Positions 3-63,222 of a stretch of DNA of 64,000 nt are shown here, piece by piece. The DNA is taken from assembly GCA_022508305.1 (NCBI GenBank), contig JAFLVM010000002.1:155729-219728 (forward strand). Reading direction: 5' to 3'. Position 1 is the stretch's first letter. Every line of letters starts with the position of its first letter. The position numbers and the translations under genes were made by a program. The notes under the pieces are model-generated. The model did no database searches and was not told the DNA's origin. It saw only the letters and a list, made by a program, of their open reading frames with translations. The DNA comes from Clostridiales bacterium. Lineage in GTDB: Bacteria > Bacillota > Clostridia > Christensenellales > CAG-314.

Positions 3-1349
3 AATCACACGGTAATGGCGGAAGCGTTGGAGCGTTGGCCGGAATACATTTTCCAAAAGCTGTTGCCCCGTATTTACCAAATCATTTTGGAAATCAACGA
101 GCGCGCTTGCCGAGAGTTTTGGGACAGAACTCAGGACTGGAAGAAGGTTTCCGACCTTGCAGTGGTGGCGTACGGACAGGTACGTATGGCAAATTTGTCC
201 ATCATTTCTTCCCACTCCGTCAACGGCGTGTCCGAACTGCACAGCAACATTTTGAAGAAGGACATTTTCCGCGACTTTTACGAACTGGAGCCGAGCAAGT
301 TCACCAACGTTACCAACGGTATTGCTCACCGCAGATGGCTGTGTCAGGCTAACCCCGGTCTAAGCAAGCTCATCAAGGAATTGATTGGCGACAAGTTTGT
401 GTCCGACGCAAGCGAGCTTACCAAGCTAAACGCCTACTTGGACAACACTCTCGTTCATGAGAAAATGGCGGCAATCAAGTTGCAAAACAAAGAGCGCTTT
501 TCAGACCACGCTCTCAAGCGTTTGGGCGTAAAAATCGACCCCATGTCGCGTTTTGACGTGCAAGTTAAGCGTTTGCACGAGTACAAAAGGCAACTATTGA
601 ACGTGCTCAAAATCATTTCTCTCTACCACGATTTGAAGGAAAATCCCGATTTGGACGTAACTCCGCAAACCTTCATTTTCGGAGCAAAAGCAGCGCCCAG
701 CTACTACACAGCTAAGGAAGTAATCAAGCTTATTTGCTGCATACAAAAGGAATTGGAAACGCAACCGAAAATCCGCGAAAAACTCAACGTGGTGTTCATG
801 GAAAACTACTGCGTAACGATGGCGGAGGAACTAATACCCGCTGCGGAAATTTCCGAGCAGATCTCCCTTGCAGGCAAGGAAGCAAGCGGAACAAGCAACA
901 TGAAGTTTATGTGTAACGGCGCAATCACCGTCGGTACGCTGGACGGCGCAAACGTGGAAATGAGCGAAGCGGTTGGCAACGACAACATATTCATCTTCGG
1001 TCTCAACGCCAAGGAAGTTACCGAACTGTGGGAAACAGGCTACAATTCCACTGCCTACTACTTCAAACTACCCCGTCTGCGCATAATAATTGAGGAATTA
1101 AACAACGGCTTTGCGGGCGAAACGTTTGAAAACATCAGCAATTACCTGCTTCGCAACTACCCCGTTGCCGATCCGTATATGTGTTTTGCCGATTTTGCCG
1201 ACTATCTTGCCGTTTGCGAAAAGATGGACGAGGCTTACAAGGATCTGAATAGATGGAACCGTATGTCTTTGAAAAACATTGCCGAGTCGGGCAGATTTGC
1301 CGCTGACCGCTCTGTTAAGGAATACGCGGAAAAGATCTGGAGATTGTAA
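3..1349 (+). CDS. glgP: Glycogen/maltodextrin phosphorylase, C-terminal part (runs off the left edge)
   Basis: Phosphorolyses alpha-1,4-glucan ends to glucose-1-phosphate in the cytoplasm. The reading frame is open to the window edge and the first codons read N-H-T-V before the ATG at 15, as in the family motif NHTVMAEALE, so the true N-terminus (roughly half the protein) lies outside. Family landmarks follow in order: DVQVKRLHEYKRQLLN, then KEASGTSNMKF, whose Lys (codon 297 counted from the ATG at 15) is the pyridoxal-phosphate lysine, then GTLDGANVEM. The stop overlaps the start of the GH13 gene by one base (TAATG), so the two are translationally coupled and probably act together on storage glucan. 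Confidence 0.95.
   Translation, partial: NHTVMAEALERWPEYIFQKLLPRIYQIILEINERACREFWDRTQDWKKVSDLAVVAYGQVRMANLSIISSHSVNGVSELHSNILKKDIFRDFYELEPSKFTNVTNGIAHRRWLCQANPGLSKLIKELIGDKFVSDASELTKLNAYLDNTLVHEKMAAIKLQNKERFSDHALKRLGVKIDPMSRFDVQVKRLHEYKRQLLNVLKIISLYHDLKENPDLDVTPQTFIFGAKAAPSYYTAKEVIKLICCIQKELETQPKIREKLNVVFMENYCVTMAEELIPAAEISEQISLAGKEASGTSNMKFMCNGAITVGTLDGANVEMSEAVGNDNIFIFGLNAKEVTELWETGYNSTAYYFKLPRLRIIIEELNNGFAGETFENISNYLLRNYPVADPYMCFADFADYLAVCEKMDEAYKDLNRWNRMSLKNIAESGRFAADRSVKEYAEKIWRL
530..554 (-). repeat. AYATGGGGT motif copy in glgP
   Basis: Exact ACCCCATGT core at 538-546 with A-rich left and TTTT right flanks. It encodes the family-conserved D-P-M-S, so this copy may be coincidental. Confidence 0.4.
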
Positions 1350-3187
1350 TGGAATACGTAAAATACAACCCAACCGACGAATTTTACAAAAGTATCGTCG
1401 GAGCGGTGAGCGAGGACGCGCGTCTTTGTATACGCTTGCAAATACATCAAGTAGTCAACCCAAGCAAGGTGACGTTGGTGGTGTACGGAGACGACGGGTT
1501 CAAGCAGGAAATACCTATGAATTTGGATGCAAGCGGCGACGGCTACGACGACTATATTGCCGACGTCCAACTGAACAAAGGACTGTACTTTTACTACTTT
1601 GTAATGGACGGCGTAAGCTACGAGCGGCACATCGGTCTCGGTGAAAAACAACGCGCCTCGTTGTTTTACGACAACGTTCGTCCGTGGCAACTATCCGTTT
1701 ATAAGAAGAAGTACAAAACACCCTCTTGGCTGAACAAAGGCGTTATGTACCAAGTGATGGTGGACAGGTTTTGCGCAAGCGGCGACACCGTTCCCAATGA
1801 GGACAAGGTGATGCGCCGTTGGGGCGAGCAACCCTATTTTCGCGCGGAGAACGGCGTGGTTCGCAACAGAGATTTCTTTGGCGGCAACCTCAAAGGACTT
1901 ACGGGCAAGCTTGATTATCTTGCGTCGCTTAACGTGACTACGCTGTACCTCAATCCCATCTTCAAGGCGTACAGCAACCACAAGTACGACACGGAAGATT
2001 ACGAAATTATCGACCCCATGTTCGGAAATTTGGATGATTTTACCAATTTATGCGAACAGGCGAACAAGCTTGGTATCAGAGTTGTTTTGGACGGCGTGTT
2101 CAACCACGTGGGTAGTAGCTCAAAGTATTTCAACCGCGAGGGCAAGTACGAGGGCGGCGCCTACAACGACGAAAACTCTCCCTATCGCGATTGGTTCAAC
2201 ATTCGCCCCGACGGCAGCTACGAGTGTTGGTGGAACTTTGAAACTTTGCCACGTCTAAACGCAAACAGCGTTGGCGCGCAAAAGTATTTCACGGGCAAAG
2301 AGGGCATCGTTCGCCGTTGGCTGAAAGCAGGAGCGTCAGGTTGGCGATTGGACGTAGTGGACGAGGTTGCCGACGTAATGTTGGACAAAATCGTAACTGC
2401 AGCAAAAAGGGAAAAGTCCGATGCCGCAATCATCGGCGAAGTGTGGGAAGACGCGTCCAACAAGGTGGACTACGGCGCGCGCCGTCACTACCTTGACGGC
2501 AGTCAGCTGGATTCGGTGATGAACTACCCGCTCATGAACGGTATCATCGATTTCGTCCGCGACGGAAACGAACAGGCGCTTTCCAAGGTTGTTTTCGACA
2601 TCGTAAACAACTACCCGAGCTTTGTTCGCAACAATTTGATGAACATTCTCGGCACGCACGACACCGTCCGTATTTTGACTAACCTTGCAGGTACCCGTTT
2701 GGACAATGCAAGCAAGGAAGTTATGGCGAGTACGAAACTGGACAACGCTCAGTACGAGCAGGGTGTCAATTTGCTCAAATTTGCAGCCGTGTTGCAGTAC
2801 ACAATGTTCGGCTTCCCCTGTGTTTTCTACGGCGACGAGGTGGCAATGGAAGGTTACAAAGACCCGTTTTGCCGCGGTTGTTACCCATGGGGTAGCGAAA
2901 ACAAACACGTTTTGGACTTTTACCGCCGTTTGGGCGAGCTTAGAAAGCAATCCGTGTTTAGCGACGGCGACTTCCACGAACTTGTTGCCGAGCGCGGCGT
3001 GTACGCCTTCGAACGGGTGGACACTTCAACGGCAACCAAGGTGATAGTTGCCCTGAACCGCGGACACTTCAGCTACAATCTGAATTTGGGCGACGTTTAC
3101 GAGGACATGTTGACAGGACGCAAGTACAACGAAAATTGCAATTTGCAACCTAACAGTTACGTCATTCTAATCCGATTACACGTGTAA
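1349..3187 (+). CDS. GH13 alpha-amylase family enzyme (neopullulanase/maltodextrin-type)
   Basis: A 612-residue glycoside hydrolase acting on alpha-glucans. Residues about 15-105 look like the beta-sandwich (CBM34-like) N-domain of neopullulanases and cyclomaltodextrinases. The catalytic barrel follows: region I DGVFNHVG, region II GWRLDVVDEV with nucleophile D335, region III GEVWED with acid/base E364, region IV LGTHDT with D438. Family knowledge says D-E-D in this order is catalytic. Region IV carries Thr where Asn is usual. There is no signal peptide, so it is intracellular. It is coupled to glgP by TAATG, which fits joint breakdown of glycogen or imported maltodextrin. Exact substrate (debranching, cyclodextrin or maltodextrin) cannot be told. 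Confidence 0.9.
   Translation: MEYVKYNPTDEFYKSIVGAVSEDARLCIRLQIHQVVNPSKVTLVVYGDDGFKQEIPMNLDASGDGYDDYIADVQLNKGLYFYYFVMDGVSYERHIGLGEKQRASLFYDNVRPWQLSVYKKKYKTPSWLNKGVMYQVMVDRFCASGDTVPNEDKVMRRWGEQPYFRAENGVVRNRDFFGGNLKGLTGKLDYLASLNVTTLYLNPIFKAYSNHKYDTEDYEIIDPMFGNLDDFTNLCEQANKLGIRVVLDGVFNHVGSSSKYFNREGKYEGGAYNDENSPYRDWFNIRPDGSYECWWNFETLPRLNANSVGAQKYFTGKEGIVRRWLKAGASGWRLDVVDEVADVMLDKIVTAAKREKSDAAIIGEVWEDASNKVDYGARRHYLDGSQLDSVMNYPLMNGIIDFVRDGNEQALSKVVFDIVNNYPSFVRNNLMNILGTHDTVRILTNLAGTRLDNASKEVMASTKLDNAQYEQGVNLLKFAAVLQYTMFGFPCVFYGDEVAMEGYKDPFCRGCYPWGSENKHVLDFYRRLGELRKQSVFSDGDFHELVAERGVYAFERVDTSTATKVIVALNRGHFSYNLNLGDVYEDMLTGRKYNENCNLQPNSYVILIRLHV
2013..2021 (-). repeat. AYATGGGGT motif copy in GH13 gene
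   Basis: Exact ACCCCATGT core, encoding D-P-M-F in a family-conserved segment; flanks are only partly A/T-rich, so possibly coincidental. Confidence 0.35.
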
Positions 3188-3275
3188 CGGCTTTTACGCT
3201 GAAAAAACATACAGTTCGCTAAGACGTTTTAATTGCAATTTTGAAAATTTTTGAGTAGTAATTTCTCTCAAATAA

Positions 3276-3304
3276 TTGACATAATTATATGTAAAGTTTA
3301 TATT
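3276..3304 (+). promoter_or_regulatory. Sigma-A promoter of the yitT pair
   Basis: TTGACA, 17-base spacer, TATATT, about 60 bases before the TTG start of the first YitT gene. Confidence 0.75.
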
Positions 3305-3367
3305 TATTTTATCGGGATTTTGTATTTTAGATAGTGCGAAATCTCTTTTTTACGCGAGGACGAAATT

Positions 3368-10491: not shown

Positions 10492-10539
10492 GTTTTCCCG
10501 CCCCATGTTGATTTTTTTTACATATGGGGCAAAAAACGG
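10492..10539. repeat. Inverted pair of the ATGGGGY motif, intergenic
   Basis: Starts at the base after a stop codon. The left arm GCCCCATGT (10500-10508) and right arm ACATATGGGGC (10520-10530) flank a T-rich loop, with GTTTT and AAAAAC outer flanks that also pair. It could act as a terminator-like hairpin, and it overlaps the next promoter. Confidence 0.75.
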
Positions 10540-12784: not shown

Positions 12785-12812
12785 GTTTTCCTACCCCATA
12801 TTGACTTTTTTA
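12785..12812 (-). repeat. AYATGGGGT motif copy, intergenic
   Basis: Core ACCCCATAT at 12793-12801 with GTTTTCCT before and TTGACTTTTTT after, seven bases past a stop codon and just ahead of the terminator. Confidence 0.7.
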
Positions 12813-18005: not shown

Positions 18006-18659
18006 ATGACAAACGTTTTACTCAACTACTACAACTTTGACGGCGATTGGGCGCGTCCGCATTTGGAAAAACTGTTCAAAAACCGACCCCATGTCCTAAT
18101 TTTGCCCTTAGCATACCGAGAAACTCAAGCTTGGGATTACAACAGCTTTTTGTCTATCTACGGCAAAGGCGGCGAAAAGTACGACAACATTTTACGTCCG
18201 TTTCTTTCTTACGGCTACGCAGAGCGTGAAATAGAGTGGCTCAATCCCTACGACGGCGCTAACCACCTACAACAGGTGCAAAATGCCGATTTGCTGTTCT
18301 TCACGGGCGGCATGCCGGAAAAGGCAATTGCGCGTATGGAACAACTGGGTATAGTTGAAGCTGTAAAGAACTTCCGCGGCACCGTCATGGGAGCTTCCGC
18401 AGGCGCAATGCTGCAACTTGACACGTACCACATCACCCCCGACGAGGACTACGACAGCTACGGAATTTGGCGCGGCTTAGGGCTTGTCAAAGGTATCGAC
18501 CTTGAGGTTCACTATCTTGCCACCGACTTACAAAACAGCTGTACTGCGCGCGCCGTAAAGGAGCTGAACTTGCCCGTGTATCAAATGTGGCACGAGGGCG
18601 GATTGCTCATTGAGGGCGACAAAGTCACCGTAATGGGGCAGGTCGAGATTGTAAAGTAG
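18006..18659 (+). CDS. Peptidase S51 (dipeptidase E-like) family protein
   Basis: A 217-residue class-I-glutamine-amidotransferase-like protein. DLLFFTGGMPEKAI and VMGASAGAMLQL match the S51 nucleophile elbow, with S131 the probable nucleophile. DLEVHYLATDLQ and MWHEGGLLIEGD follow, the former providing a likely His. Peptidase E cleaves Asp-X dipeptides; other relatives degrade cyanophycin, so the substrate is uncertain. The start at 18006 is immediately downstream of deoA and within reach of the GGAG in its last codons. The stop codon is part of the terminator stem. Contains an in-frame copy of the ATGGGGT motif, encoding R-P-H-V. Confidence 0.8.
   Translation: MTNVLLNYYNFDGDWARPHLEKLFKNRPHVLILPLAYRETQAWDYNSFLSIYGKGGEKYDNILRPFLSYGYAEREIEWLNPYDGANHLQQVQNADLLFFTGGMPEKAIARMEQLGIVEAVKNFRGTVMGASAGAMLQLDTYHITPDEDYDSYGIWRGLGLVKGIDLEVHYLATDLQNSCTARAVKELNLPVYQMWHEGGLLIEGDKVTVMGQVEIVK
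18086..18094 (-). repeat. AYATGGGGT motif copy in the S51 gene
   Basis: ACCCCATGT core preceded by CAAAAACCG and followed by CCTAATTTT; read in frame as P-H-V. Confidence 0.6.
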
Positions 18660-22498: not shown

Positions 22499-23106
22499 TG
22501 ATTTTTGACGCTAACAGTCACGAGGTTTTGTCACCGATAATAGCCGCAGTTGAACAGGCTTTAAAAAGCAAAAAACGCGATATGGGGTGGCAAAAACCTT
22601 TAATTTTGGCAATAGACGGTTATTGCGGTTCGGGTAAAACCTACTATTCGAAACTAATTTCCGAACACTTTGGCGCAAGCATAATTCATTGCGACGATTT
22701 TTTCCTGCCCAAGCAAATGCGAACGCTCGAACGACTAAGCGAAATGGGCGGTAACGTTCACTATGAGCGTTTGGCAGAAGTTCTCGACAGGGTGCGGCAA
22801 GGCAAGTCATTTACCTATCAAGCGTACGACTGTTCAACGGACAGTTTCGTTGACCGTTACTTTGAAGCTACCGACGTCGTTGTCGTAGAGGGCAGCTACG
22901 CATTGCGCCCGAACCTTAGACAGTACTACGACGTTGAAATTTTGCTCACCGTGGACAAAACTACGCAGTACAATCGCCTGCTTCAACGCGAGGGCGAATG
23001 CGGAGTAATCAACTTTGTAAACAAGTGGATTCCGCTGGAAAATAAGTACTTCGACCAACTTGATACGTCTCAGTGCCTAATCATAGATACAACCCACAAT
23101 AATTGA
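22498..23106 (+). CDS. P-loop kinase, uridine kinase-like
   Basis: A 202-residue P-loop NTPase of the uridine kinase/phosphoribulokinase superfamily. Walker A is GYCGSGKT (about residues 41-48), followed by IIHCDDFFLP, the Asp pair that binds Mg and substrate in this family, and VVVVEGSYAL. Similar Bacillota proteins are annotated as uridine kinase, but substrate cannot be read from sequence. Coupled to nrdR (TAATG). Contains a copy of the ATGGGGT motif at 22580, read as D-M-G-W. Confidence 0.75.
   Translation: MIFDANSHEVLSPIIAAVEQALKSKKRDMGWQKPLILAIDGYCGSGKTYYSKLISEHFGASIIHCDDFFLPKQMRTLERLSEMGGNVHYERLAEVLDRVRQGKSFTYQAYDCSTDSFVDRYFEATDVVVVEGSYALRPNLRQYYDVEILLTVDKTTQYNRLLQREGECGVINFVNKWIPLENKYFDQLDTSQCLIIDTTHNN
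22580..22588 (+). repeat. AYATGGGGT motif copy in the kinase gene
   Basis: ATATGGGGT core with AAAAAACGCG before and GGCAAAAACC after; read as M-G-W. Confidence 0.65.
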
Positions 23107-26503: not shown

Positions 26504-27136
26504 ATGGATTTTGAAACATTCGTAGCTCTACTACGGCAATACCTTATGGACAGCGGCAACTTGTACTTTGTTTTGTACGCTGTTGCAACTTGCTTGCTCA
26601 GCGAGCTTTGCAAAAAAATCTTCGTCAACAAAGCCAAGGTGGACGTGCTTCACAAGTTTGATTTTGCGGTGATTTTCCCGTTTATTTTCGGACTTGCTTT
26701 TTCGGTAATGGACGTCTATTTGGTACATGGGGTTAGGATTTTTGACTTTTCGATAGCTTTACACATAGTTTTGCAATGCGTAACTATCGGCGCGTTTGCG
26801 TCAACACTTTTCAAAGTTGTCAAGTCACTTTCGGGGCAAAGCCTAAGCAGCTTGATGAAAAACGACGTGTTTGGAGTAATCTATTCGCAGCTGCTGTATT
26901 TTGGCAACGTTCGCGAAAAGCTTGCAAGCAAAACTCTCACCATGAAGGATTTTATTGAGCAGGTGAAGCTTCTATCGACAAACGCCGAAAGTATCTACAA
27001 GTCGGAGGACAGCGCCGAAGTCAAACGCTGTCAGCTCGCCAAGCTTTTGAGCGGTATAATAGATGAACGGAGCATCAATTCATGCATTACGGCATTAAAC
27101 GAGGCGCTGATCAACTACACTTCAAGTAAAAAGTAA
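26504..27136 (+). CDS. Hypothetical membrane protein, 210 aa
   Basis: Unrecognised protein with three to four hydrophobic segments in the first 110 residues (about 20-36, 55-75, 84-105) and a soluble, probably helical C-terminal half ending in Lys. A promoter-like TTGCTT-18-TACAAT (26378-26407) lies upstream, and AAGGAG is 12 bases before the ATG. The frame extends left, but that extension lies over the promoter and lacks a ribosome-binding site. No enzymatic motif seen. It contains one motif copy at 26725, read as V-H-G-V. A terminator follows. Confidence 0.65.
   Translation: MDFETFVALLRQYLMDSGNLYFVLYAVATCLLSELCKKIFVNKAKVDVLHKFDFAVIFPFIFGLAFSVMDVYLVHGVRIFDFSIALHIVLQCVTIGAFASTLFKVVKSLSGQSLSSLMKNDVFGVIYSQLLYFGNVREKLASKTLTMKDFIEQVKLLSTNAESIYKSEDSAEVKRCQLAKLLSGIIDERSINSCITALNEALINYTSSKK
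26725..26733 (+). repeat. AYATGGGGT motif copy
   Basis: ACATGGGGT core followed by TAGGATTTTT; read as H-G-V. Confidence 0.5.
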
Positions 27137-27301: not shown

Positions 27302-29599
27302 ATGCGAACTTACTTAAATGACAATTGGCAATTTTTCCGTGATTGGAAGGACAGCATTTTTAACAGTGACGGCGGTGAGGCGGTAAGACTGCCGCACAGT
27401 CACGCCATTGCGCCCTTCAACTGCTTTGACGAGGGTATCTATCAATACGTCAGCGGCTACAAGCGCAATTTCCGCCTTGCAGATTTAGCGGGTAAGACTT
27501 ATTTACTTACGTTCGAAGGCGTAGCGCACCAAGCCGAGGTATTTGTAAACGGCAAGAGTGTTGCAACTCACCAATGCGGCTACACGGCGTTCACGGTAGA
27601 CGTCACCCCGCACGTTCACGAAGGTGACAATCAACTCGTCGTCAAGGTGGACAGTCGCAAGTCGCTCAATCAACCGCCCTTTGGGTTCGTAATCGACTAC
27701 CAAACCTACGGCGGAATTTACCGCGAGGTCTTCTTGGAAGAAAAAACAGGCGTATTCGTTCAAGATGCATTTGTCAAGGCGTTGCCATCTAAACCCGTAG
27801 AAATTGACGTTACTCTCGGCAACTTCACTGAGCCTACTCAAGCGCTTTTGACTATAAAAAATGAACATGGGGTAGCTTTTTCTGCGAATTATCCTTGTGA
27901 AAACAGTCATTTTGCTATCTGCGCCGACGTTAAACTTGATTTGTGGAGCGTAGACGAACCCAATCTGTACACCTTGCAGATTTCCGTTGGCAATGACGTT
28001 TACGAAACGAAATTTGGCGTACGCAGCGCGGAGTTTACCAAGAACGGATTTTTCCTCAACGGCAAAAAATTGAAAATCGTAGGACTTAACCGTCATCAAA
28101 GCTACCCGTACGTAGGTTACGCAATGCCGGAAAGTATGCAGCGACTGGACGCCAAGATTTTGAAGGAAAAGCTGTGCGTCAACGCCGTTAGAACTTCCCA
28201 TTACCCGCAATCGCAGTATTTCATTGACGAATGCGACAAGCTGGGTCTATTGGTATTTACGGAAATTCCCGGTTGGCAGCACATCGGCGACGAGGAGTGG
28301 AAAGAGGTAGCCAAACAGAATGTCCGCGAAATGATAGAGCAGTACCGCAATCACCCGTCAATTATTTTGTGGGGCGTACGTATCAACGAGTCTTTGGACA
28401 ACGACGGGCTGTACTCCGAGACCAACGCCATTGCGCACAGGTTAGACCCCACCCGTCAAACAGGAGGTGTGAGATATCTCAAACACTCTCATCTGCTTGA
28501 GGACGTGTACACCTTCAACGATTTCAACCGTGAGGGCGCAACCGACCGCAAAGAGGTGTGTGCGAGCAGCGTACCCTACCTTGTGACGGAGTACAACGGA
28601 CACATGTATCCTACCAAAAGCTACGACGACGTTTTGCACAAGCTGGAGCATACCTTGCGTTACGCGCGCATGCTGGACGATGTTTTCGCAGCAGACACAA
28701 CGTCGGGCGCCTTTGGATGGTGTATGTTCGATTACCTCACCAACAGCGACTTTGGCAGCGGCGACAGAATTTGCTACCACGGCGTTACGGATATGTTCCG
28801 CAATCCCAAGCAAGCTGCGGGCGTGTTTTCTGCAATGGGCAATCGTCCCTTCCTTGACGTGACCTTTTCTTCCGAACTTGGAGACTATCCCGAGGCGAAG
28901 GTGGAAGGCATGTACGTGCTCACTAACTGCGACACAGTCAAGCTGTACAAGGCGGGCGTGTACATACGTGATTTCACCCACGCCGACAGCCCGTTCAAGC
29001 ACTTACCCAATCCGCCCATACTTATTGACGACATGATTGGCGACAGGCTAACGACAGAGGACGGTATAAGCCGTTCAGGCGCTTTGAAAATCAAACGTTG
29101 CCTTGCCGACGTACACAAGTACGGACTAAACAACCTGCCGTTGCGCTCTAAATTTGCAATTGCTCGCGTAATGGCAAGCGAACACCTCACAATGGAACGC
29201 GTGGTGCAGCTCTACAACAAATACGAAAGCAGTTGGGGTAGCGCGGCTAACGTAATCACCTTAGAGGGCTTCGTTGACGGCAAACTTGTTTTGACCAAAA
29301 ACGTTGGCAGCATGATTTCCTATACGTTGGACGTTACGCCTTCCGCGACGGTTCTGCACGAAAACAGCACCTACGACGTAGCGGCGGTGCAGATTGTAGT
29401 ACGCGACCAGTACGGAAACGTTTGCCCGTACGTCAACAAGGCGGTAACGCTCAAGGCAAGCGGTGCAATAGAGCTAATTGGCGACAGTGTTGTAGCGTTG
29501 CCCGGCGGTATGTTCGGAACCTACGTCAAGACGACGGGCGTCAAGGGTAAAGGTACGCTATGCGTTGACGACCAAACTATCGAGTTTGTAGTTGAATAA
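27302..29599 (+). CDS. GH2 family beta-galactosidase/beta-glucuronidase-type enzyme
   Basis: A 765-residue retaining glycosidase. The sugar-binding N-domain (about 1-150), Ig-like domain (150-250) and TIM barrel (250-550) are in the usual order. The acid/base is E363 in the segment WGVRINES, and the nucleophile is E430 in VTEYNGH. GLNRHQSYP replaces the usual GxNRHE before the barrel. A C-terminal part (550-765) contains an Ig-like region with PYVNKAVTLKASG. No signal peptide, so it acts in the cytoplasm on imported glycosides. AGAGG precedes the ATG. The specificity (galactoside, glucuronide or other) is not determinable. Transcribed alone from a consensus promoter. Confidence 0.9.
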   Translation: MRTYLNDNWQFFRDWKDSIFNSDGGEAVRLPHSHAIAPFNCFDEGIYQYVSGYKRNFRLADLAGKTYLLTFEGVAHQAEVFVNGKSVATHQCGYTAFTVDVTPHVHEGDNQLVVKVDSRKSLNQPPFGFVIDYQTYGGIYREVFLEEKTGVFVQDAFVKALPSKPVEIDVTLGNFTEPTQALLTIKNEHGVAFSANYPCENSHFAICADVKLDLWSVDEPNLYTLQISVGNDVYETKFGVRSAEFTKNGFFLNGKKLKIVGLNRHQSYPYVGYAMPESMQRLDAKILKEKLCVNAVRTSHYPQSQYFIDECDKLGLLVFTEIPGWQHIGDEEWKEVAKQNVREMIEQYRNHPSIILWGVRINESLDNDGLYSETNAIAHRLDPTRQTGGVRYLKHSHLLEDVYTFNDFNREGATDRKEVCASSVPYLVTEYNGHMYPTKSYDDVLHKLEHTLRYARMLDDVFAADTTSGAFGWCMFDYLTNSDFGSGDRICYHGVTDMFRNPKQAAGVFSAMGNRPFLDVTFSSELGDYPEAKVEGMYVLTNCDTVKLYKAGVYIRDFTHADSPFKHLPNPPILIDDMIGDRLTTEDGISRSGALKIKRCLADVHKYGLNNLPLRSKFAIARVMASEHLTMERVVQLYNKYESSWGSAANVITLEGFVDGKLVLTKNVGSMISYTLDVTPSATVLHENSTYDVAAVQIVVRDQYGNVCPYVNKAVTLKASGAIELIGDSVVALPGGMFGTYVKTTGVKGKGTLCVDDQTIEFVVE
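27865..27873 (+). repeat. AYATGGGGT motif copy in the GH2 gene
   Basis: ACATGGGGT core preceded by ATAAAAAATGA and followed by AGCTTTTTC; read as E-H-G-V, the same reading as the copy at 41975. Confidence 0.65.
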
Positions 29600-29699: not shown

Positions 29700-29721
29700 A
29701 TTTCGACCCCATGTCACGTTT
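29700..29721 (-). repeat. AYATGGGGT motif copy, intergenic
   Basis: ACCCCATGT core at 29706-29714, eight bases past the stop of the minus-strand gene, with AAATTTCG and CACGTTTTT flanks. Confidence 0.7.
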
Positions 29722-30474: not shown

Positions 30475-30503
30475 TTTTTCTCAACCCCATGTCAATTTTT
30501 TAA
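30475..30503 (-). repeat. AYATGGGGT motif copy, intergenic
   Basis: ACCCCATGT core at 30484-30492 with TTTTTCTCA and CAATTTTTTA flanks, beyond the hydrolase terminator. Confidence 0.75.
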
Positions 30504-36307: not shown

Positions 36308-36358
36308 CGTTTTTGCAACCCCATGTTAACTTTTTTCAGTGATGGGGTGAGAAAAACG
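36308..36358. repeat. Inverted pair of the ATGGGGT motif, intergenic
   Basis: Left arm ACCCCATGT (36318-36326) and right arm TGATGGGGT (36340-36348). Outer flanks CGTTTTTGCA and GAGAAAAACG also pair, giving a 51-base near-palindrome just after a stop codon. Confidence 0.8.
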
Positions 36359-37646: not shown

Positions 37647-38344
37647 AAATAGAAGGAAGAAACAGCGTTTACGAGGCGCTAAGATCGGACGAAGTCACCG
37701 TCAACTCGCTCATGTGCGAAAAGGGCTTGCAGAACAGTATCACTGCGCTTGCCCGTCAAAAGGGAGTAAAAATCACCTACGTTGACAAGAGCGTACTTGA
37801 CAAAGCCAGCCTCGAGGGTAAACACCAAGGGTACGTTGCCGACGTCACCGATTTCAATTACTGCGAAATTGAGGACATTTTGGCGCAAAATTCCACCCCA
37901 TTTATCATTATTTTGGACGGACTGTCTGATCCGCACAATTTCGGCAGCATAATTCGCGCCTGCGAATGCGCAGGTGTAGACGGTATCATCATCGGTAAAA
38001 ACCGTCAGGTTGCGGTCAACGACACGGTAGTTCGTACTTCGGCTGGAGCTGTCGCGCACGTAAAAATTGCCCGCGTAACCAACGTTAACAATGCAATCAA
38101 GCAGCTGCAGGAAAAGGGCGTGTGGGTGTACGCGTTAGACATGGACGGACAGGAAATAACGACTGTCAACCTCACGGGTTCGGTTGCAATCGTTGTAGGC
38201 AGCGAGGGTGACGGCATTTCTCAATACACGAAAAAGTGTTGTGACGGCGTAGTGTCGTTGAAGCTCAAGGGCAAGGTAAATTCGCTAAACGCGTCCGTTG
38301 CCTGCGGAATTGCCGTTTACGAGGTAGTTAGACAAAGAGGTTAG
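37643..38344 (+). CDS. rlmB: 23S rRNA (guanosine-2251-2'-O)-methyltransferase RlmB
   Basis: A 233-residue SpoU (TrmH) family methyltransferase. The N-terminal substrate-binding domain (1-75) starts IEGRNSVYEAL. The trefoil-knot SAM domain has LDGLSDPHNFGSIIRACECAG, VVGSEGDGIS and LKGKVNSLNASVACGIAVYEV, motifs 1-3 of the family. Overlaps mrnC by four bases; sigH starts two bases later. Contains a weaker motif variant (ACCCCATTT at 37895). Confidence 0.95.
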   Translation: MKIEGRNSVYEALRSDEVTVNSLMCEKGLQNSITALARQKGVKITYVDKSVLDKASLEGKHQGYVADVTDFNYCEIEDILAQNSTPFIIILDGLSDPHNFGSIIRACECAGVDGIIIGKNRQVAVNDTVVRTSAGAVAHVKIARVTNVNNAIKQLQEKGVWVYALDMDGQEITTVNLTGSVAIVVGSEGDGISQYTKKCCDGVVSLKLKGKVNSLNASVACGIAVYEVVRQRG

Positions 38345-41604: not shown

Positions 41605-42659
41605 AATATGCAATCATCGTAGCGGCAGGCAATGCAACCCGTTACGGCAAAGACAAACTAAACGAACAACTACTCGGTAAAAGCGTCCTGGTTCATTCCG
41701 TGGACGTTTTCAAAAGTGTTGCCGACGTGGTGATAGTGGTAGGACAACGCATTGACGGAACTCTCTACGCAGAGGGTGGCGCAACGCGTTTCCAGTCTGT
41801 CTTGAACGGATTTCAACTAATAGCTGACGACGCTCAAGGGGTGGTAGCAATTCACGACGGCGCGCGTCCGTTTGTTCCTCGCGAATTTGTCGAGCGGTTA
41901 TATTGTCAGGCAGATGAACACGGTAGCGCAGTTCCCCGTTTGCCCGTCACCGACACGGTTTACCAAAAAAATGAACATGGGGTAGGGAAAATAGACAGGA
42001 ACGCCTTGTTTACCGTGCAAACTCCGCAGGTTTTCAACGTTTCTAAACTTCGTTACGCTATTGCAAATGCTAACGGCAACTACACCGACGAAAGTACGCT
42101 GTTTTACGATACCTACGGTGAAGTACACTTTGTAGACGGACTGCGTTCTAACGTCAAGATTACTTATCAAGACGATTTGCCCGACTTTAGAGTGGGAGTT
42201 GGCTTTGACGTGCATCCCTTTGAGAAGGGCGACGGCGTGATTCTCGGCGGAGTGAAAATCCCATTCGGCATGAAGTTAAAAGGACATTCCGATGCCGACG
42301 CGCTGTGCCACGCCATTTGCGACGCAATACTTTCCGCATCAGGCAACAAGGACATAGGACACCAATTCCCCGACACCGATGAAAAATATAAGGGCGCAGA
42401 CAGCACGAAATTACTTGCCACCTGTGTAGACGTTGCAGGCAGTAGCGGTTACGAAGTTGTCAACGTTTCGGCGGTGGTGATATGCCAACAACCGAAAATC
42501 TCACCGTTTATTGATGAGATGGCTGCGCGTTTATCTGCAATTCTCAAGGTTACGCCCGATTGCGTCAATCTTTCCGCAACTACGACGGAACACCTCGGCG
42601 CGCTTGGCAACGGCGACGGTATAGCCGTAAGCGCAGAGGCTCTTTTGAGGCGTTTCTAA
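41601..42659 (+). CDS. ispDF: Bifunctional IspD/IspF (MEP isoprenoid pathway)
   Basis: A 352-residue fusion. Residues 1-195 are 2-C-methylerythritol-4-phosphate cytidylyltransferase (IIVAAGNATRYGKDKL nucleotide loop, AIHDGARPFV, VPRLPVTDTV, FTVQTPQVF). Residues 197-352 are 2,4-cyclodiphosphate synthase (VGVGFDVHPF with metal ligands D203 and H205, KGHSDADALCHAICDAIL, DIGHQFPDTD, TTTEHLGALG). IspE, the intermediate step, is not nearby. The fusion is well known in Proteobacteria and less usual in Bacillota. The IspD half is compact. It carries a motif copy at 41975. Coupled to the S4 gene by ATGA. Confidence 0.95.
   Translation: MKYAIIVAAGNATRYGKDKLNEQLLGKSVLVHSVDVFKSVADVVIVVGQRIDGTLYAEGGATRFQSVLNGFQLIADDAQGVVAIHDGARPFVPREFVERLYCQADEHGSAVPRLPVTDTVYQKNEHGVGKIDRNALFTVQTPQVFNVSKLRYAIANANGNYTDESTLFYDTYGEVHFVDGLRSNVKITYQDDLPDFRVGVGFDVHPFEKGDGVILGGVKIPFGMKLKGHSDADALCHAICDAILSASGNKDIGHQFPDTDEKYKGADSTKLLATCVDVAGSSGYEVVNVSAVVICQQPKISPFIDEMAARLSAILKVTPDCVNLSATTTEHLGALGNGDGIAVSAEALLRRF
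41975..41983 (+). repeat. AYATGGGGT motif copy in ispDF
   Basis: ACATGGGGT core preceded by CCAAAAAAATGA and followed by AGGGAAAATAG; read as E-H-G-V. Confidence 0.7.
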
Positions 42660-43367: not shown

Positions 43368-44402
43368 ATGAAATCATTATCGGTCACACTCATTGTAAAG
43401 AACGAACAGGACAATCTTTCCCGTTTACTGCCCATGCTGAATTTTGCCGACGAGATTGTAGTAGTGGACACAGGCTCCACTGACAACACCGTAGAGGTTG
43501 CTAAAAAATACACCGACAGCGTGTACGGTTTTACTTGGCAAAACGACTTTTCCAAGGCGAGGAACTACGCTATTAGCAAGGCTAATTGCGAATACATTAT
43601 GTGGTTAGATGCCGACGACGTTTTGCCGCCACACACGCAAAAAATGCTAATGGGGTGGAAAAACTCGCAAGATAACGTCAGCGTGTACTTTATGAAGTAT
43701 CGAATGGAGGGCGAATTTCCTTTTTGGTTTTGGCGTGAGCGAATAGTCAGGCGTACAAGTAAATGTCGCTTCAAGGGTTTTATACACGAAGCCATTACAC
43801 CCTTTGGTGTGATAAAGTATTTGGACTGTGAGGTAGTTCACAAACCCTCCGCTTCGCATGAACAGCGCAATTTGCTTATTTACCAAAACGCTATTGCTGA
43901 GGGGCGGCGTTTTACTTTGCGCGACAAATTTTACTACGCGCGCACGCTAATTGAATGCGGTCAAATGGAAAAAGCGTTGCCTTTGTTGAAAACTTTTGCA
44001 TCCAACCGTAGAGCATACGTAGTAGATAGGGTGGACGCGTACAAGCTGCTTGCAAACTTCGCTTTGTCGCAAGGTGACGTTGACGGCGCGCTGAAGTACC
44101 TTTCCAAAAGCGTACGACTCTTGCCGCCAAGCGGTGAAACGTGCTGTATTTTCGGTAATTGCTATTTCCAAATGCGTAATTACAAACACGCCGCGCAGTG
44201 GTACGGCTACGCGTTGGATGCCACCTCGCAAATGGGCTTTATCAACGAATATTACGTAAAATTCCTACCCCATGTTCAGCTTTCGGTATGCTTGTGGCGT
44301 CTCGGCGACAGGCAGTCCGCTTTGTGTCACCACGAGGCTGCCAAAGCAGTCGCGCCAAATCACCCGACCATTCGCGCAAACGACAGGTGGTTTCGTTCAT
44401 AG
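43368..44402 (+). CDS. Family 2 glycosyltransferase with TPR tail
   Basis: A 344-residue protein. Residues 1-200 are GT-A glycosyltransferase, with VTLIVKNEQDNLSRLL, VVVDTGSTDNTVEVA and the DXD site MWLDADDVLPP. Residues 205-340 form TPR-like helical repeats (ARTLIECGQMEKALPLL, ALSQGDVDGALKYLSKSV, YFQMRNYKHAAQWYGYAL). Such GT2-TPR proteins add sugars to proteins or surface glycans; no target is apparent. No ribosome-binding site precedes the ATG; a TATTTT seven bases upstream hints at a leaderless transcript, but without a good -35. Two motif copies, at 43648 (variant) and 44267, lie within it. Confidence 0.88.
   Translation: MKSLSVTLIVKNEQDNLSRLLPMLNFADEIVVVDTGSTDNTVEVAKKYTDSVYGFTWQNDFSKARNYAISKANCEYIMWLDADDVLPPHTQKMLMGWKNSQDNVSVYFMKYRMEGEFPFWFWRERIVRRTSKCRFKGFIHEAITPFGVIKYLDCEVVHKPSASHEQRNLLIYQNAIAEGRRFTLRDKFYYARTLIECGQMEKALPLLKTFASNRRAYVVDRVDAYKLLANFALSQGDVDGALKYLSKSVRLLPPSGETCCIFGNCYFQMRNYKHAAQWYGYALDATSQMGFINEYYVKFLPHVQLSVCLWRLGDRQSALCHHEAAKAVAPNHPTIRANDRWFRS
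44267..44275 (-). repeat. AYATGGGGT motif copy in the GT2 gene
   Basis: ACCCCATGT core preceded by AAAATTCCT; read as L-P-H-V. Confidence 0.6.
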
Positions 44403-46716: not shown

Positions 46717-46748
46717 AGTAAAAATTGCACATGGGGTGGGAAAATACG
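46717..46748 (+). repeat. AYATGGGGT motif copy, intergenic between tpiA and gpmI
   Basis: ACATGGGGT core at 46729-46737 with AGTAAAAATTGC before and GGGAAAATAC after, inside an operon. Confidence 0.75.
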
Positions 46749-48847: not shown

Positions 48848-50941
48848 ATGACTACATTCAAGGAAAAACTACTACAAGTAATCAAAAATATAGATTCCGA
48901 GTACTTTACCGCCAAGCAGTTGTACGGCATAATGCAAACCCATTCAACTGCGGAACGTAAGGCGATTTGCGATGCGCTAAAGGAACTGGAAGAGAACTGC
49001 CAAATAGTGCAGGATGCGAAAAACCGTCGTTACCGTTTGGTGAAGGAGGGTGATTACGGAACAGCGGAGTTTCAGGGAAATGCCCGCGGCTTCGGCTTTC
49101 TCATTCGTGAAGAGGGCGAGGATTTGTTCGTACCCGCATCCAAAACCCACGGCGCCTTCCACAAGGACACTGTACTGTACCGCAAGACGGGAGGCTCGGC
49201 GGACGAGGCGGAAGTTGTCAAAATCATCTCTCGCGGAATGACCCACGTCGTAGGCACCTACGACAAATCCAACAACGCGCGTTTCGTAATACCCGACGAC
49301 AAACGGTTTGTCAGCGACGTGTACGTACAGCCCAAAATGGACATGGGGGCGAAAAACGGACAAAAAGTTGTCGTTCACATCACCGTTTACCCCGAGGACA
49401 ACCGTAACTGTCCCGAGGGTGAAATCGTGGAAATACTTGGCTTCCCCAACGAGAAAAACGTTGATATGATGGCTGTAGCGCGCAGCTTCGGACTGAGTCA
49501 AAGTTTCCCTCACGCCTGTCAAAAACGCGCAGAGGCAATACCTCAGACATTGAATGAGCATGACCTAAACGGTAGGCGCGATTTGCGCGGTAGAAAAATC
49601 TTTACGATAGACGGAGCCGACGCCAAAGACTTGGACGACGCTGTGTCAATTGCCCGTAACGGCGACGGTACGTTTACTCTGGGCGTGCACATTGCCGACG
49701 TGTCCAACTACGTCAAGCCGAACGACGACGTTGATAAAGAGGCGTTCAATCGCGGCACAAGCGTGTATCTACCCGAAACGGTCTTTCCCATGCTTCCGCG
49801 CGAGCTGTCTAACGGCATTTGCTCGCTGTTTGAAAAGGTGGACAGGCTCACCCTGTCTTGCGAAATGACGGTAAACAAACAGGGCAAGGTGGTGGACTAC
49901 GACGTTTTCACTTCAGTAATCAACAGCTGTCACCGCCTAACCTACGACGAGGTACAGGCAATTTTTGACGGTGACGGCGAAATTGCCGCAAAATACAGCG
50001 ATATTCTTGACGACCTGTTTGCAATGAAAGAGCTTGCGGAAATTTTGCAAAAGAAACGTAACAAGCGTGGTAACATAGAATTTGCGAGTAAGGAAGTCAC
50101 ATTCGTTCACGACAGCAAGGGCAACGTGGTGGACGTAAAGCTTATGGAAAACACCTTTTCTCACCAGCTGATTGAGGAGTTTATGATACTCGCCAACGAA
50201 ACGGTTGCCGAGTACGCAGAAACGTGCTACTACCCATTTGTGTACCGAGTTCACGCCAAACCCGACGAGGCAAAGCTGTCCGTACTGCTTGCGCTCATGC
50301 GCGGTTTGGGCATAAACGTCAAGCGAACGCAAGAGATACACAATTCGGTGTTGCAGGACGCGCTCATGCAGGCAAAACTCACCCCATATTTCAATTTGGT
50401 CAACGACGTGATGCTTAGAACCATGCAAAAAGCAAAGTACAGCGACGTTAACAGCGGACACTTTGGCTTGGCGAGCAGGTGCTATTGCCATTTCACTTCG
50501 CCCATACGCCGTTACGCCGATTTGGTGGTGCACCGCGTGTTGAAAACTGCATTAAGCGGCAAAATGACAGACAAAGCACTCGCCGCTTACACGGACATGG
50601 CGTACGACGCGGCACAACAGGCAAGCCTCCGCGAAAAGATTGCCGACGAGGCGGAACGCAAAGCCGACGACGTTAAGAAGTGCGCCTACGCCGAGCGCGT
50701 TATCGGACAGACTTTCGATGCGCTCATTTCAGGAGTAACGGAACGAGGCATTTATGCCGAGTTGAGTAACACAGTCGAGGGATTTATACCTATAGAGTGT
50801 TTGGGCGCGCGCCTCACCTACAACCCGCAGCAATTTTGTTTGTACAATGACGCCGTCAAGTACTCGCTTGGCGATGCAATTACGGTACAAATCGTATCCG
50901 TAAATAAGCAGGCATGCAAAATCGAAATGGCTCGCAAATAG
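48848..50941 (+). CDS. rnr: Ribonuclease R
   Basis: A 697-residue 3'-5' exoribonuclease of the RNB family. A winged-helix-like N-terminus (about 1-65) is followed by two cold-shock domains (about 65-215), the RNB catalytic domain (TIDGADAKDLDDAVS, metal ligands; GNIEFASKEV; HFTSPIRRYADLVVHR) and a C-terminal S1 domain (FDALISGVTERGIYAEL). It lacks the long basic tail of some homologues. No ribosome-binding site is seen before the ATG, and an AATACT lies six bases upstream. With SmpB it takes part in trans-translation quality control. Motif copy at 50381. Confidence 0.95.
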   Translation: MTTFKEKLLQVIKNIDSEYFTAKQLYGIMQTHSTAERKAICDALKELEENCQIVQDAKNRRYRLVKEGDYGTAEFQGNARGFGFLIREEGEDLFVPASKTHGAFHKDTVLYRKTGGSADEAEVVKIISRGMTHVVGTYDKSNNARFVIPDDKRFVSDVYVQPKMDMGAKNGQKVVVHITVYPEDNRNCPEGEIVEILGFPNEKNVDMMAVARSFGLSQSFPHACQKRAEAIPQTLNEHDLNGRRDLRGRKIFTIDGADAKDLDDAVSIARNGDGTFTLGVHIADVSNYVKPNDDVDKEAFNRGTSVYLPETVFPMLPRELSNGICSLFEKVDRLTLSCEMTVNKQGKVVDYDVFTSVINSCHRLTYDEVQAIFDGDGEIAAKYSDILDDLFAMKELAEILQKKRNKRGNIEFASKEVTFVHDSKGNVVDVKLMENTFSHQLIEEFMILANETVAEYAETCYYPFVYRVHAKPDEAKLSVLLALMRGLGINVKRTQEIHNSVLQDALMQAKLTPYFNLVNDVMLRTMQKAKYSDVNSGHFGLASRCYCHFTSPIRRYADLVVHRVLKTALSGKMTDKALAAYTDMAYDAAQQASLREKIADEAERKADDVKKCAYAERVIGQTFDALISGVTERGIYAELSNTVEGFIPIECLGARLTYNPQQFCLYNDAVKYSLGDAITVQIVSVNKQACKIEMARK
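50381..50389 (-). repeat. AYATGGGGT motif copy in rnr
   Basis: ACCCCATAT core preceded by GGCAAAACTC and followed by TTCAATTTGG; read as T-P-Y. A near-copy with one mismatch lies at 49341. Confidence 0.5.
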
Positions 50942-59790: not shown

Positions 59791-59805
59791 TATTGCTCCA
59801 CCCTC

Positions 59806-59834
59806 TTGAAAAATTGTCGCGGTTAGTATATAAT
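59806..59834 (+). promoter_or_regulatory. Promoter of the EF-G-like gene
   Basis: TTGAAA, 17 bases, TATAAT; leader of about 95 bases. Confidence 0.7.
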
Positions 59835-59936
59835 AAATGATAGTTGTTTGTAGAATGGAAATTTTGTGCAAAGGAACAAAACAAAAGCTTACAAACCAAT
59901 CAAACTGAAAATAATTTATTAGGAGTACTAACTAAC

Positions 59937-61979: not shown

Positions 61980-62032
61980 TCTCGCATCTAACACCTCAAA
62001 CCTTCGATAATTTATATTGTTAATAAAGAAAT

Positions 62033-62064
62033 GACCTCAACAGATTCTGTTGAGGTCGTTTTTC
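62033..62064 (+). terminator. Terminator of the EF-G-like gene
   Basis: Stem GACCTCAACAG/CTGTTGAGGTC then a T-rich tail. Confidence 0.88.
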
Positions 62065-62075
62065 TATAATGAGTA

Positions 62076-62104
62076 TTGAATAATTATTTGTAGTATGGTA
62101 TAAT
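62076..62104 (+). promoter_or_regulatory. Promoter of the LURP-like gene
   Basis: TTGAAT, 17 bases, TATAAT. Confidence 0.7.
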
Positions 62105-62128
62105 ATTTATTAAGAAGGAGGTACGCCG

Positions 62129-62620
62129 ATGAAAAAAATCATTGTCAAAAACAAGTTCGTTTCTTGGGGCGGCAGTTCCAAGGTGGAAGATGAAGCGGGA
62201 AACGCTTTGTACGAGGTAAAAGGTCACGCCTTCAGTTGGACAAGAAGAAAAACGCTTCGCGATCTAAGCGGAAACGTATTGTACAAAATTCGCAACAAGT
62301 GGCCGACGTTCATCATGCACAGCGCCTATATCACAGACGGTAGCGGCAACACGGTTTGCAGAGTGAAAGAAACCTTAAAGTTTAATCATTTTTTCACCGT
62401 AGATGAAACACGCGACGACATTCAAATCACCGGTTACATTTCGCAAGGATTGCAGGTAGTACGTAACGGTGTACTTATCGGCACTATTCGCAAGGATTTT
62501 TGGAAGCTTCGCGACTACTTTGTTTTAGAATATCCTGATATGCAGGACCCTGCATTTTTGATTGCTCTGACAATTGCCATTGACAACATTGGCGACAAAA
62601 ACAAAAGCAGTTCAACCTAA
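62129..62620 (+). CDS. LURP-one-related/tubby-like beta-barrel protein
   Basis: A 163-residue protein of the LOR/DUF567 family. Features are alternating short strands with the repeat D-x-x-G-N-x-x-Y/V (EDEAGNALYEVKG, RDLSGNVLYKIRNK, TDGSGNTVCRVKE), then VDETRDDIQITGYI and the hydrophobic C-terminal helix DPAFLIALTIAID, the usual tubby-fold central helix. Function in bacteria is unknown; phospholipid scramblase-like binding has been suggested for the fold. AAGGAGG precedes the ATG. Single gene with terminator. Confidence 0.8.
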   Translation: MKKIIVKNKFVSWGGSSKVEDEAGNALYEVKGHAFSWTRRKTLRDLSGNVLYKIRNKWPTFIMHSAYITDGSGNTVCRVKETLKFNHFFTVDETRDDIQITGYISQGLQVVRNGVLIGTIRKDFWKLRDYFVLEYPDMQDPAFLIALTIAIDNIGDKNKSSST

Positions 62621-62644
62621 TAGAATAATAGTGTACAATACTTA

Positions 62645-62682
62645 ACAAAAAAGCAACCTCAGCACTTTACGCCGAGGTTGTT
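62645..62682 (-). terminator. Terminator of the flavodoxin gene (may work both ways)
   Basis: Stem CAACCTC/GAGGTTG plus inner GC pair; T run on the minus strand. Confidence 0.8.
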
Positions 62683-62703
62683 TGAATTTTTAAGTATTAG
62701 TGA

Positions 62704-63222
62704 TTATTTCACTACCGATTTTGCCCAGGCTTCAACGCCTCTTTCTGCGCGAGCTGCTTCTGCTCCGTGTACGGAAATTCCTTTGCCAATTGTCGCGCCT
62801 TTGCATATGCGTTTCAAATCTTGTTCGCAGCTACCCAGTCCGCTACCCTCGTGCGTCATCACTGCAAATACGTTTTTCCCACCCCATGTCAACTTTTCAA
62901 GCTGTGTAAACATCGCCATGGGGAACGTTCCCCACCAACAGGGACCGCAAACGAACACGTTGTCGTACCCGTCAATACTTTCAAGATACTTTTTGAGTTT
63001 CGGTCTTGCCTGACTGTTCAATTCTCTTTTCGCCTCGTCAGCGCAAGCGTAGTAGTCTTTGGCGTACGGTTTTACAGTGTCTACTTCGAACATGTCGCCG
63101 CCAATCGCCTTTTGAATAAACTCCGCAACTATTTCGGTGTTGCCTTTGGCAAGGTTTTTGACGCTTCCGTTCCAGTAGTTCTCACCTTTGCGTGAGTAGT
63201 AAATGATAAGATTTTTCGCCAT
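62704..63222 (-). CDS. Flavodoxin-like protein
   Basis: A 172-residue FMN-binding redox protein. NLIIYYSRKGENYWNG at the N-terminus is the phosphate-loop region; VFVCGPCWWGTFPMAMFTQL carries the aromatic flavin-stacking region, and VMTHEGSGLGSCEQDLK follows. Similar to clostridial flavodoxins annotated with NAD(P)H-quinone or disulfide roles. The start at 63222 has GGGAG six bases upstream; the frame runs 16 codons further but without a site. Divergent from a cupin gene, a common pairing. A motif copy lies at 62881, read as T-W-G. Confidence 0.88.
   Translation of the reverse strand: MAKNLIIYYSRKGENYWNGSVKNLAKGNTEIVAEFIQKAIGGDMFEVDTVKPYAKDYYACADEAKRELNSQARPKLKKYLESIDGYDNVFVCGPCWWGTFPMAMFTQLEKLTWGGKNVFAVMTHEGSGLGSCEQDLKRICKGATIGKGISVHGAEAARAERGVEAWAKSVVK
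62881..62889 (-). repeat. AYATGGGGT motif copy in the flavodoxin gene
   Basis: ACCCCATGT core preceded by CGTTTTTCCC and followed by CAACTTTTC. Confidence 0.7.

What the first reader, a model, noticed from the sequence alone, without database searches (positions are those of the whole stretch)
530..62900. Over-represented dispersed motif: A-rich, AYATGGGGT, A-rich
I find 12 exact ACATGGGGT and 4 exact ATATGGGGT (either strand): 538, 2013, 12793, 14186, 18086, 22580, 26725, 27865, 29706, 30484, 36318, 41975, 44267, 46729, 50381, 62881. Near variants lie at 10500, 10522, 36340, 37895, 43648 and 49341. With equal base frequencies one 9-mer is expected about 0.5 times in 64 kb on both strands. 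Most copies also have an A run on the left and NGRR plus an A run on the right, a roughly 27-base pattern. Both orientations occur, so it is unlike Chi or FtsK-orienting sites. A 9-mer core with AT-rich flanks, inverted pairs after stop codons and copies in genes resembles DNA uptake sequences; dispersed sites for a nucleoid or partition protein are another reading.
Basis: partly seen in the sequence, partly recalled or inferred. Interest (0 to 1): 0.8.

Follow-up and report, generated by a model that had tools for sequence, protein, structure and literature searches.

The report
DNA-uptake-like tag in gut Clostridia
An uncultured gut-type bacterium scatters a roughly 44-base DNA tag across its chromosome that looks remarkably like the self-recognition tags some Gram-negative bacteria use when taking up DNA, which would be unexpected in this group, although the machine that would read it has not been found.

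Summary
AYATGGGGT occurs 156 times in the 1.47 Mb genome against 7 for the reversed control. The full motif is about 44 bases: AT tracts near -17 and -7, core, purines plus AT tract near +14, AT tract near +24, in helical phase. This parallels the published extended Haemophilus uptake signal. Copies lie on both strands without replication bias, concentrate between genes, often just after stop codons, and sometimes pair into terminator-like hairpins. In genes, several differ from relatives by substitutions without gaps. The motif marks 14 of 25 genomes of the genus and recurs in three other families. Best reading: a USS-like self-DNA tag in Clostridia, confidence 0.45. Against it: the genome has ComEC, DprA, a ComF-like and a weak ComEA-like protein but no pilus motor; copies are about 10-fold sparser than USS and clustered, with nine site-free stretches of 29-78 kb. 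Strong pilus-motor matches do associate with the motif in other families (5 of 10 motif-bearing, 0 of 12 motif-poor genomes) but not within the genus. Function is unproven; no receptor is known.

The parts
538..546 (-). core ACATGGGGT, inside a gene read by eye as glycogen-phosphorylase-like; an intact copy stands at the homologous place in G034
2013..2021 (-). core ACATGGGGT, in gene; identical 9-mer in G011, 8/9 in G034
10500..10508 (-). variant ACATGGGGC, left arm of inverted pair
10522..10530 (+). variant ATATGGGGC, right arm of inverted pair; carries the same last-base change as 10500, so the stem stays paired
12793..12801 (-). core ATATGGGGT, about 19 bp after a stop codon
14186..14194 (+). 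core ATATGGGGT, between convergent genes
18086..18094 (-). core ACATGGGGT, in gene
22580..22588 (+). core ATATGGGGT, in gene; best-scoring copy of the window
26725..26733 (+). core ACATGGGGT, in gene; differs from G011 by substitutions without indels
27865..27873 (+). core ACATGGGGT, in gene
29706..29714 (-). core ACATGGGGT, between convergent genes
30484..30492 (-). core ACATGGGGT, intergenic
36318..36326 (-). core ACATGGGGT, about 27 bp after a stop codon; left arm of an imperfect inverted pair
36340..36348 (+). variant TGATGGGGT (two off), right arm of that pair
37895..37903 (-). variant AAATGGGGT
41975..41983 (+). core ACATGGGGT, inside a gene read by eye as ispD-like
43648..43656 (+). variant TAATGGGGT
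44267..44275 (-). core ACATGGGGT, inside a gene read by eye as glycosyltransferase-like
46729..46737 (+). core ACATGGGGT, about 20 bp after a stop codon
49341..49349 (+). variant ACATGGGGG
50381..50389 (-). core ATATGGGGT with weak flanks (score 15.1), inside a gene read by eye as RNase-R-like
62881..62889 (-). core ACATGGGGT, in an open frame

Best explanation
The motif works like a Pasteurellaceae-type uptake signal sequence: a short asymmetric core plus helically phased AT tracts that a DNA-import machine of this Clostridia lineage prefers, so that fragments of kin DNA carrying it are imported and recombined, and the motif accumulates by biased gene transfer. Shown: genome-wide excess, the phased architecture, lack of orientation bias, preference for intergenic places near stop codons and between convergent genes, hairpin pairs, gap-free substitution differences from relatives at several in-gene copies, mostly intact copies, and recurrence in several families. 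Inferred: that a DNA-import system recognises it and that biased transfer spreads it. Not found: the receptor, and in this genome the pilus motor that drives import in known systems.
For: Genome count 156 against 7 reversed; strongest 8- and 10-mer signal in the 464 kb analysed. Architecture: core at 0..8, purines at +10/+11, A/T-rich +12..+16 and again +22..+25, plus tracts at -9..-5 and -18..-16; Haemophilus USS is aaAAGTGCGGTnrwwwwwnnnnnnrwwwww (passage of PMC1852404), and the Actinobacillus-type extended USS AACAAGCGGTCAAATTT (passage of PMC12616744) shares 7 of 9 core letters with ACATGGGGT. No replication bias on the right arm, 35 against 43. Within site-bearing blocks of C1, 38 of 94 copies are intergenic against 8.2 expected; convergent 11 against 1.7. 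Three inverted pairs 21-23 bp apart in C1 fold to -19 to -21 kcal/mol and precede T-rich DNA. At W26725 and C1:246522, 249302, 793389 the copy aligns to relatives without gaps. With flanks fixed, 54 exact, 13 one-off, 11 two-off cores in C1 (reversed control 0, 0, 6). Blocks hold more genes with an ortholog in the syntenic contig of G011: 79 of 82 against 67 of 81, P=0.005. DprA, ComEC and a YifB/ComM-like ATPase pass family cut-offs; a ComF-like and a ComEA-like protein match below them. Strong motor match in 5 of 10 motif-bearing and 0 of 12 motif-poor genomes of other families, P=0.0096.
Against: No PilB/ComGA-type motor in G000 or in 10 of the other 13 motif-bearing genomes of the genus; inside the genus the association is absent (3 of 14 against 1 of 11, P=0.40). 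Copies average one per 9 kb, against about one per kb for USS (PMC7811141 summary passage). They are clustered: nine gaps over 28 kb against 3.25 expected, P=0.0003, and site-free stretches include core operons, which a simple drive does not predict. Few copies are kept at homologous places: identical core in G011 1 of 51, G008 2 of 26, G034 1 of 14 alignments. Direction of change (gain here or loss there) was not established. Other genera of the same family lack it: none of 11 genomes has more than 1 copy of the 16-mer. The ComEA-like protein scores 28 bits against a cut-off of 98 and has no Pfam hit. No uptake experiment exists.
Confidence: 0.45

Rival explanations
1. Dispersed binding sites of a DNA-bending, chromosome-organising or condensin-loading protein. 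A core plus AT tracts in helical phase on both sides is what a protein wrapping about 44 bp would select; clusters would be loading zones.
For: Phased tracts on both sides of the core, which is more than the published USS pattern shows. Clustered distribution. No pilus motor needed. The 7 copies of the closest relative G034 that could be placed all lie within 2.5 kb of a G000 copy.
Against: Copies in five other species of the genus map into G000's site-free stretches about in proportion to length: 14 of 42 placed loci (13 of 40 after removing repeats) are more than 9 kb from any G000 copy, against 39% of the bases. Intergenic enrichment and hairpin pairs are the behaviour of uptake tags. No evident relation to origin, terminus or gene strand. 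Core is not palindromic.
Confidence: 0.22
2. A preference tag of another gene-transfer route: packaging by a gene transfer agent or phage, conjugation, or vesicle DNA import, which would also spread a motif by biased transfer but without a pilus.
For: Explains intact copies, gap-free differences and no pilus motor. Tens-of-kb blocks would fit larger transferred pieces.
Against: No candidate system was identified; a short phage-like gene run near C1:345-354 kb was read by eye only. The AT-tract layout specifically matches USS.
Confidence: 0.15
3. Relic: an uptake tag of pilus-bearing ancestors, now decaying in lineages such as G000 that lost the pilus, which would leave patchy survivors.
For: Strong pilus-motor matches occur in some motif-bearing genomes of four families. 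On a PGK tree two motif-poor genomes (G009, G015) are nested among motif-rich ones and the label changes at least 4 times. Block pattern could be uneven loss.
Against: G000 has the most copies of all 25 genomes yet no motor, and its copies are mostly intact rather than decayed.
Confidence: 0.12
4. A mobile repeat (REP, MITE or similar) that inserted many times.
For: Dispersed, both orientations, many intergenic.
Against: Outside the motif the flanks share nothing: among 110 copies the 16 flank hits all come from four close pairs (22-39 bp apart) whose windows overlap. Several in-gene copies align to relatives without gaps.
Confidence: 0.02
5. Artefact of a chimeric MAG or of base composition.
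For: Sharp alternation of site-rich and site-free stretches in one 1.1 Mb contig.
Against: Tetranucleotide profiles of both kinds correlate at 0.85-0.96; gene order is kept with G011 through the two site-free stretches that could be compared; 18 small contigs show no similarity to the held parts of the main contigs, so no strain duplicates were seen; the extended motif is in independent assemblies.
Confidence: 0.04

Closest known systems
Pasteurellaceae uptake signal sequence (USS), Haemophilus and Actinobacillus dialects
   Same: 9-base core; AT tracts at the same two places downstream; both orientations; in-gene and intergenic copies; inverted pairs in terminators (passages of PMC1852404, PMC12616744, PMC7811141). 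ACATGGGGT and Apl core ACAAGCGGT agree at 7 of 9.
   Different: Gram-positive Clostridia; about 106 copies per Mb instead of about 1,000; extra AT tracts on the 5' side; clustered; pilus motor not found in this genome; no receptor known.
Neisseriaceae DNA uptake sequence (DUS)
   Same: Dispersed tag, inverted pairs after genes, recurrence across a family (passages of PMC3630211).
   Different: DUS is a continuous motif of up to about 13 bases (passage of PMC12616744) and of unrelated sequence.
Chi / KOPS / SRS-type oriented octamers (recalled)
   Same: Short, abundant, chromosome-wide.
   Different: No replication-strand bias here and a long structured flank.
matS, parS/Noc and similar chromosome-organising sites (recalled)
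   Same: Dispersed sites confined to parts of a chromosome.
   Different: Those are palindromic (recalled); this is asymmetric, and its site-free stretches are not kept among species.

Membership tests
USS/DUS uptake sequences | Short core strongly over-represented genome-wide | tested here: met
   156 against 7 reversed; 110 against 4.5 expected at order 3 and 17.9 at order 5, in 864 kb
USS/DUS uptake sequences | Extended USS layout: core, then two AT tracts about one turn apart | tested here: met
   against passages
USS/DUS uptake sequences | Both orientations, no replication bias | tested here: met
   72/84; 35/43 on the right arm; left of the origin only 2/9, too few to judge
USS/DUS uptake sequences | Intergenic preference and hairpin pairs acting as terminators | tested here: met
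   termination itself not assayed
USS/DUS uptake sequences | In-gene copies arise by substitution | tested here: inconclusive
   several copies differ from relatives without gaps, but direction of change not established
USS/DUS uptake sequences | Accumulation in the core genome | tested here: inconclusive
   79/82 against 67/81 genes with ortholog, but core operons also lie in site-free stretches
USS/DUS uptake sequences | About 1,000 or more copies per genome | tested here: not met
   156 copies
USS/DUS uptake sequences | Type IV pilus or pseudopilus motor in the genome | tested here: not met
   No PF00437 match above cut-off in G000; its best, 23.5 bits, lies in a PriA-like frame; MAG, 94.5% complete
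USS/DUS uptake sequences | ComEC channel and DprA | tested here: met
USS/DUS uptake sequences | Receptor binding and biased uptake of tagged DNA | not testable with these tools
   needs experiment
Chi/KOPS | Strand bias relative to replication | tested here: not met
   right arm
REP/MITE mobile repeats | Shared element sequence beyond the motif, insertion into genes | tested here: not met
parS/Noc/matS-type sites | Palindromic site in a conserved chromosomal domain | tested here: not met
   asymmetric core; site-free stretches not kept among species

The most novel reading that the evidence does not exclude
Clostridia of this order possess a self-recognition tag for DNA import that evolved independently to the same design as the Haemophilus USS (nine-base core plus helically phased AT tracts), shared across at least four families, and in many of them read by a machine that is not a type IV pilus.
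Probability: 0.25. Interest if true: 0.88.

Novelty: new variant of a known kind. Interest (0 to 1): 0.7.

Why it matters
If it is an uptake tag, sequence-specific DNA import would exist in Gram-positive Clostridia without an outer-membrane secretin, the place where kinking helped by AT tracts is thought to matter in Haemophilus (passage). It would make the origin and purpose of uptake tags testable in an independent lineage, and would imply frequent kin recombination in these uncultured bacteria. If instead it is an architectural site, it is a new kind of chromosome-organising element for a group where I know of none.

Tried and rejected
Composition or chance: rejected under Markov orders 1 to 5. 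Second motif in the site-free stretches: none of comparable strength (the 'block' counts of that call count boundary copies twice and are not used). Dialect in motif-poor G003: nothing with the same architecture in 227 kb. Chimeric assembly. Conserved chromosomal domains: of 60 loci around relatives' copies 42 could be placed on the G000 letters held, 18 not; two G006 copies appear twice, so 40 are distinct. Site-free stretches as islands: the two of nine that lie in the part syntenic to G011 keep gene order there, and the four read by eye hold many core genes. Site-free locus imported from a sampled species: best identities 71-80%, as elsewhere. ComEA-like gene only in motif-rich species: a short frame, lipoprotein-like by eye, stands before ComEC in 10 of 12 loci, rich or poor; G018 is cut and G015 unclear. 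Papers: no listing names an uptake tag in Clostridia; one search listed 10 of 130 papers holding the letters, one on a gene transfer agent, none opened. PMC1852404, PMC12616744, PMC7811141, PMC5397411 and PMC3630211 were seen as passages only.

Weak points: most or all genomes compared are MAGs, and binning tends to lose islands such as pilus clusters (recalled), so absence of a motor is weak evidence. The 22 genomes were the 10 outside the genus with at least 5 copies of the 16-mer, and 12 with at most 1, chosen by me from the same genera or, for f32, a sister genus; genomes with 2-4 copies were not tested. 'Motor' means a match at E below 1e-100; weaker partial matches over the Pfam cut-off (for example G098, G055; G036, G032, G013, G005, G035) were not counted. 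Fisher tests ignore kinship.
Full report
What was checked. Sixteen copies in 64 kb stand against 0.27-0.40 expected under Markov orders 1-3 and 2.96 under order 5. In the genome, 1,471,821 bases in 46 contigs, there are 156 copies against 7 for the reversed pattern. The motif is the strongest 8- and 10-mer signal in 464 kb of this genome.

Organism. The window carries ordinary Clostridia genes such as GAPDH, PGK and phosphoglycerate mutase, which I named by reading the translations. The best GAPDH matches are uncultured Clostridia MAGs, 97% for HAN104, and 79% for Anaerocaecibacter muris and Pumilibacter intestinalis; NCBI places Anaerocaecibacter in Pumilibacteraceae.

Anatomy. Sixty-three copies (16 of the window, 47 of C1:90-490 kb) give a motif from about -18 to +25: A/T at -18..-16, A-rich tract at -9..-5, purine at -1, core AYATGGGGT, purines at +10/+11, A/T-rich +12..+16, A/T-rich +22..+25. 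Tract centres near -17, -7, +14 and +24 are in step with the DNA turn. Literature passages give the extended USS as aaAAGTGCGGTnrwwwwwnnnnnnrwwwww (PMC1852404, passages only) and AACAAGCGGTCAAATTT (PMC12616744, passages only): the 3' half is the same plan, and the second core agrees with ACATGGGGT at 7 of 9. The 5' tracts are an addition.

Placement. I called genes by longest open frame in 864 kb (window and C1:90-890 kb) holding 110 of the 156 copies. In C1, 38 of 94 copies are intergenic; inside the site-bearing blocks 8.2 would be expected; convergent gaps hold 11 against 1.7, tandem 23 against 4.6, divergent 4 against 1.9. In the window 6 of 16 are intergenic. Many intergenic copies lie 12-30 bp from a gene end. 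Three near-exact inverted pairs 21-23 bp apart in C1 fold into hairpins of -19 to -21 kcal/mol before T-rich DNA. In the window pair 10500/10522 both cores bear the same last-base change, which keeps the stem paired. On the right replication arm copies point 35 one way and 43 the other; left of the origin 2 and 9.

Origin of copies. Around 110 copies the only flank similarity is 16 hits, all from four close pairs whose windows overlap. Aligned with relatives at about 70% identity, several in-gene copies face homologous sequence without gaps (W26725, C1:246522, 249302, 793389); identical cores at the aligned place occur in 1 of 51 (G011), 2 of 26 (G008) and 1 of 14 (G034) alignments, and G034 has one further copy within 60 bp of the aligned place. 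Window copy 538, too near the window end for that test, is intact in G034. Many intergenic alignments are gapped and uninformative, and the direction of change was not established. Separately, 7 of 42 placed relatives' copies fall within 25 bp of a G000 copy, where 0.6% of the bases do, so some copies are old. With both flanks fixed there are 54 exact, 13 one-off and 11 two-off cores in C1 (reversed control 0, 0, 6).

Distribution. Counts vary among the 25 genomes of the genus from 156 to 2. With the 16-mer AYATGGGGTNNRRAWW, 13 of 23 same-genus genomes sampled have 5 or more copies, and G034 has 85; G016 was not sampled and has two 9-mers. Of 11 genomes of other genera of the same family none has more than 1. 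Outside the genus 10 of 373 genomes of the order have 5 or more, in families f3, f15 and f32, the highest being G388 with 42; reversed controls reach at most 4. On a PGK tree of 19 genomes (rich meaning 26 or more 9-mers) the label changes at least 4 times, and 16-18 of 500 shuffles do as well: clustered, with losses or gains.

Clusters. In C1:90-890 kb nine gaps exceed 28 kb, 3.25 expected, P=0.0003; variance to mean in 20 kb bins is 2.76. The site-free stretches have a similar tetranucleotide profile; the two that can be compared keep synteny with G011; four that I read hold core operons. In the part syntenic to G011, 79 of 82 genes in blocks and 67 of 81 in site-free stretches have an ortholog there, P=0.005; identities do not differ, P=0.72. 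G034's 7 placed copies lie within 2.5 kb of G000 copies, while copies of five other species fall in G000's site-free stretches about as length predicts. I cannot explain the clustering fully.

Machinery. ComEC (PF03772) is in 25 of 25 genomes. G000 encodes DprA and a YifB/ComM-like ATPase, a ComF-like protein below its family cut-off, and before ComEC a lipoprotein whose best match, far below cut-off, is a ComEA-like family. PF00437 matches strongly (E below 1e-100) in only G002, G004, G010 and G012 of the genus; 9 of 25 pass the cut-off if short partial matches are counted. PilB, PilT and PilC of G012 find nothing in the G000 letters held. In other families the strong match is in 5 of 10 motif-bearing and 0 of 12 motif-poor genomes, P=0.0096; within the genus 3 of 14 and 1 of 11, P=0.40; together 8 of 24 and 1 of 23, two-sided P=0.023.

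Judgement. The anatomy and placement of a USS are met; copy number and pilus are not, and uptake itself is untested. I therefore say that it works like a USS with confidence 0.45 and do not file it as one. The strongest rival is a DNA-wrapping chromosome protein.

Noticed in passing
G008 loci L153-L166 (for example L154:1971-2062, L158:11868-12309): A separate family of dispersed repeats (TTGCAGATTATTTTACAGGGGATACACTCGCTC and partners with TTGATGGGGATATGCGAGCG) is abundant in G008.
   Followed up: no
G000 C1:491-510 kb (L167): One open frame of about 6,470 codons inside a site-free stretch.
   Followed up: no
window 10500-10530: Both arms of the inverted pair carry the same T-to-C change at the last core base, which keeps the hairpin paired and suggests selection on the hairpin itself.
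   Followed up: partly
G000 C1:456566-459236 (L129): Two copies of the motif lie inside comEC, which follows a ComEA-like lipoprotein gene and precedes a holA-like gene; G034 also has a copy in this locus (L295:1614).
   Followed up: partly
G003 loci L131-L146: GTGGTGGA is over-represented (25 against 3.3) but without conserved flanks.
   Followed up: partly
G000 contigs C2-C11 and C13-C20 (18 fetched): Contigs of 562-762 bases with no similarity to the held parts of the main contigs; possible binning debris.
   Followed up: no
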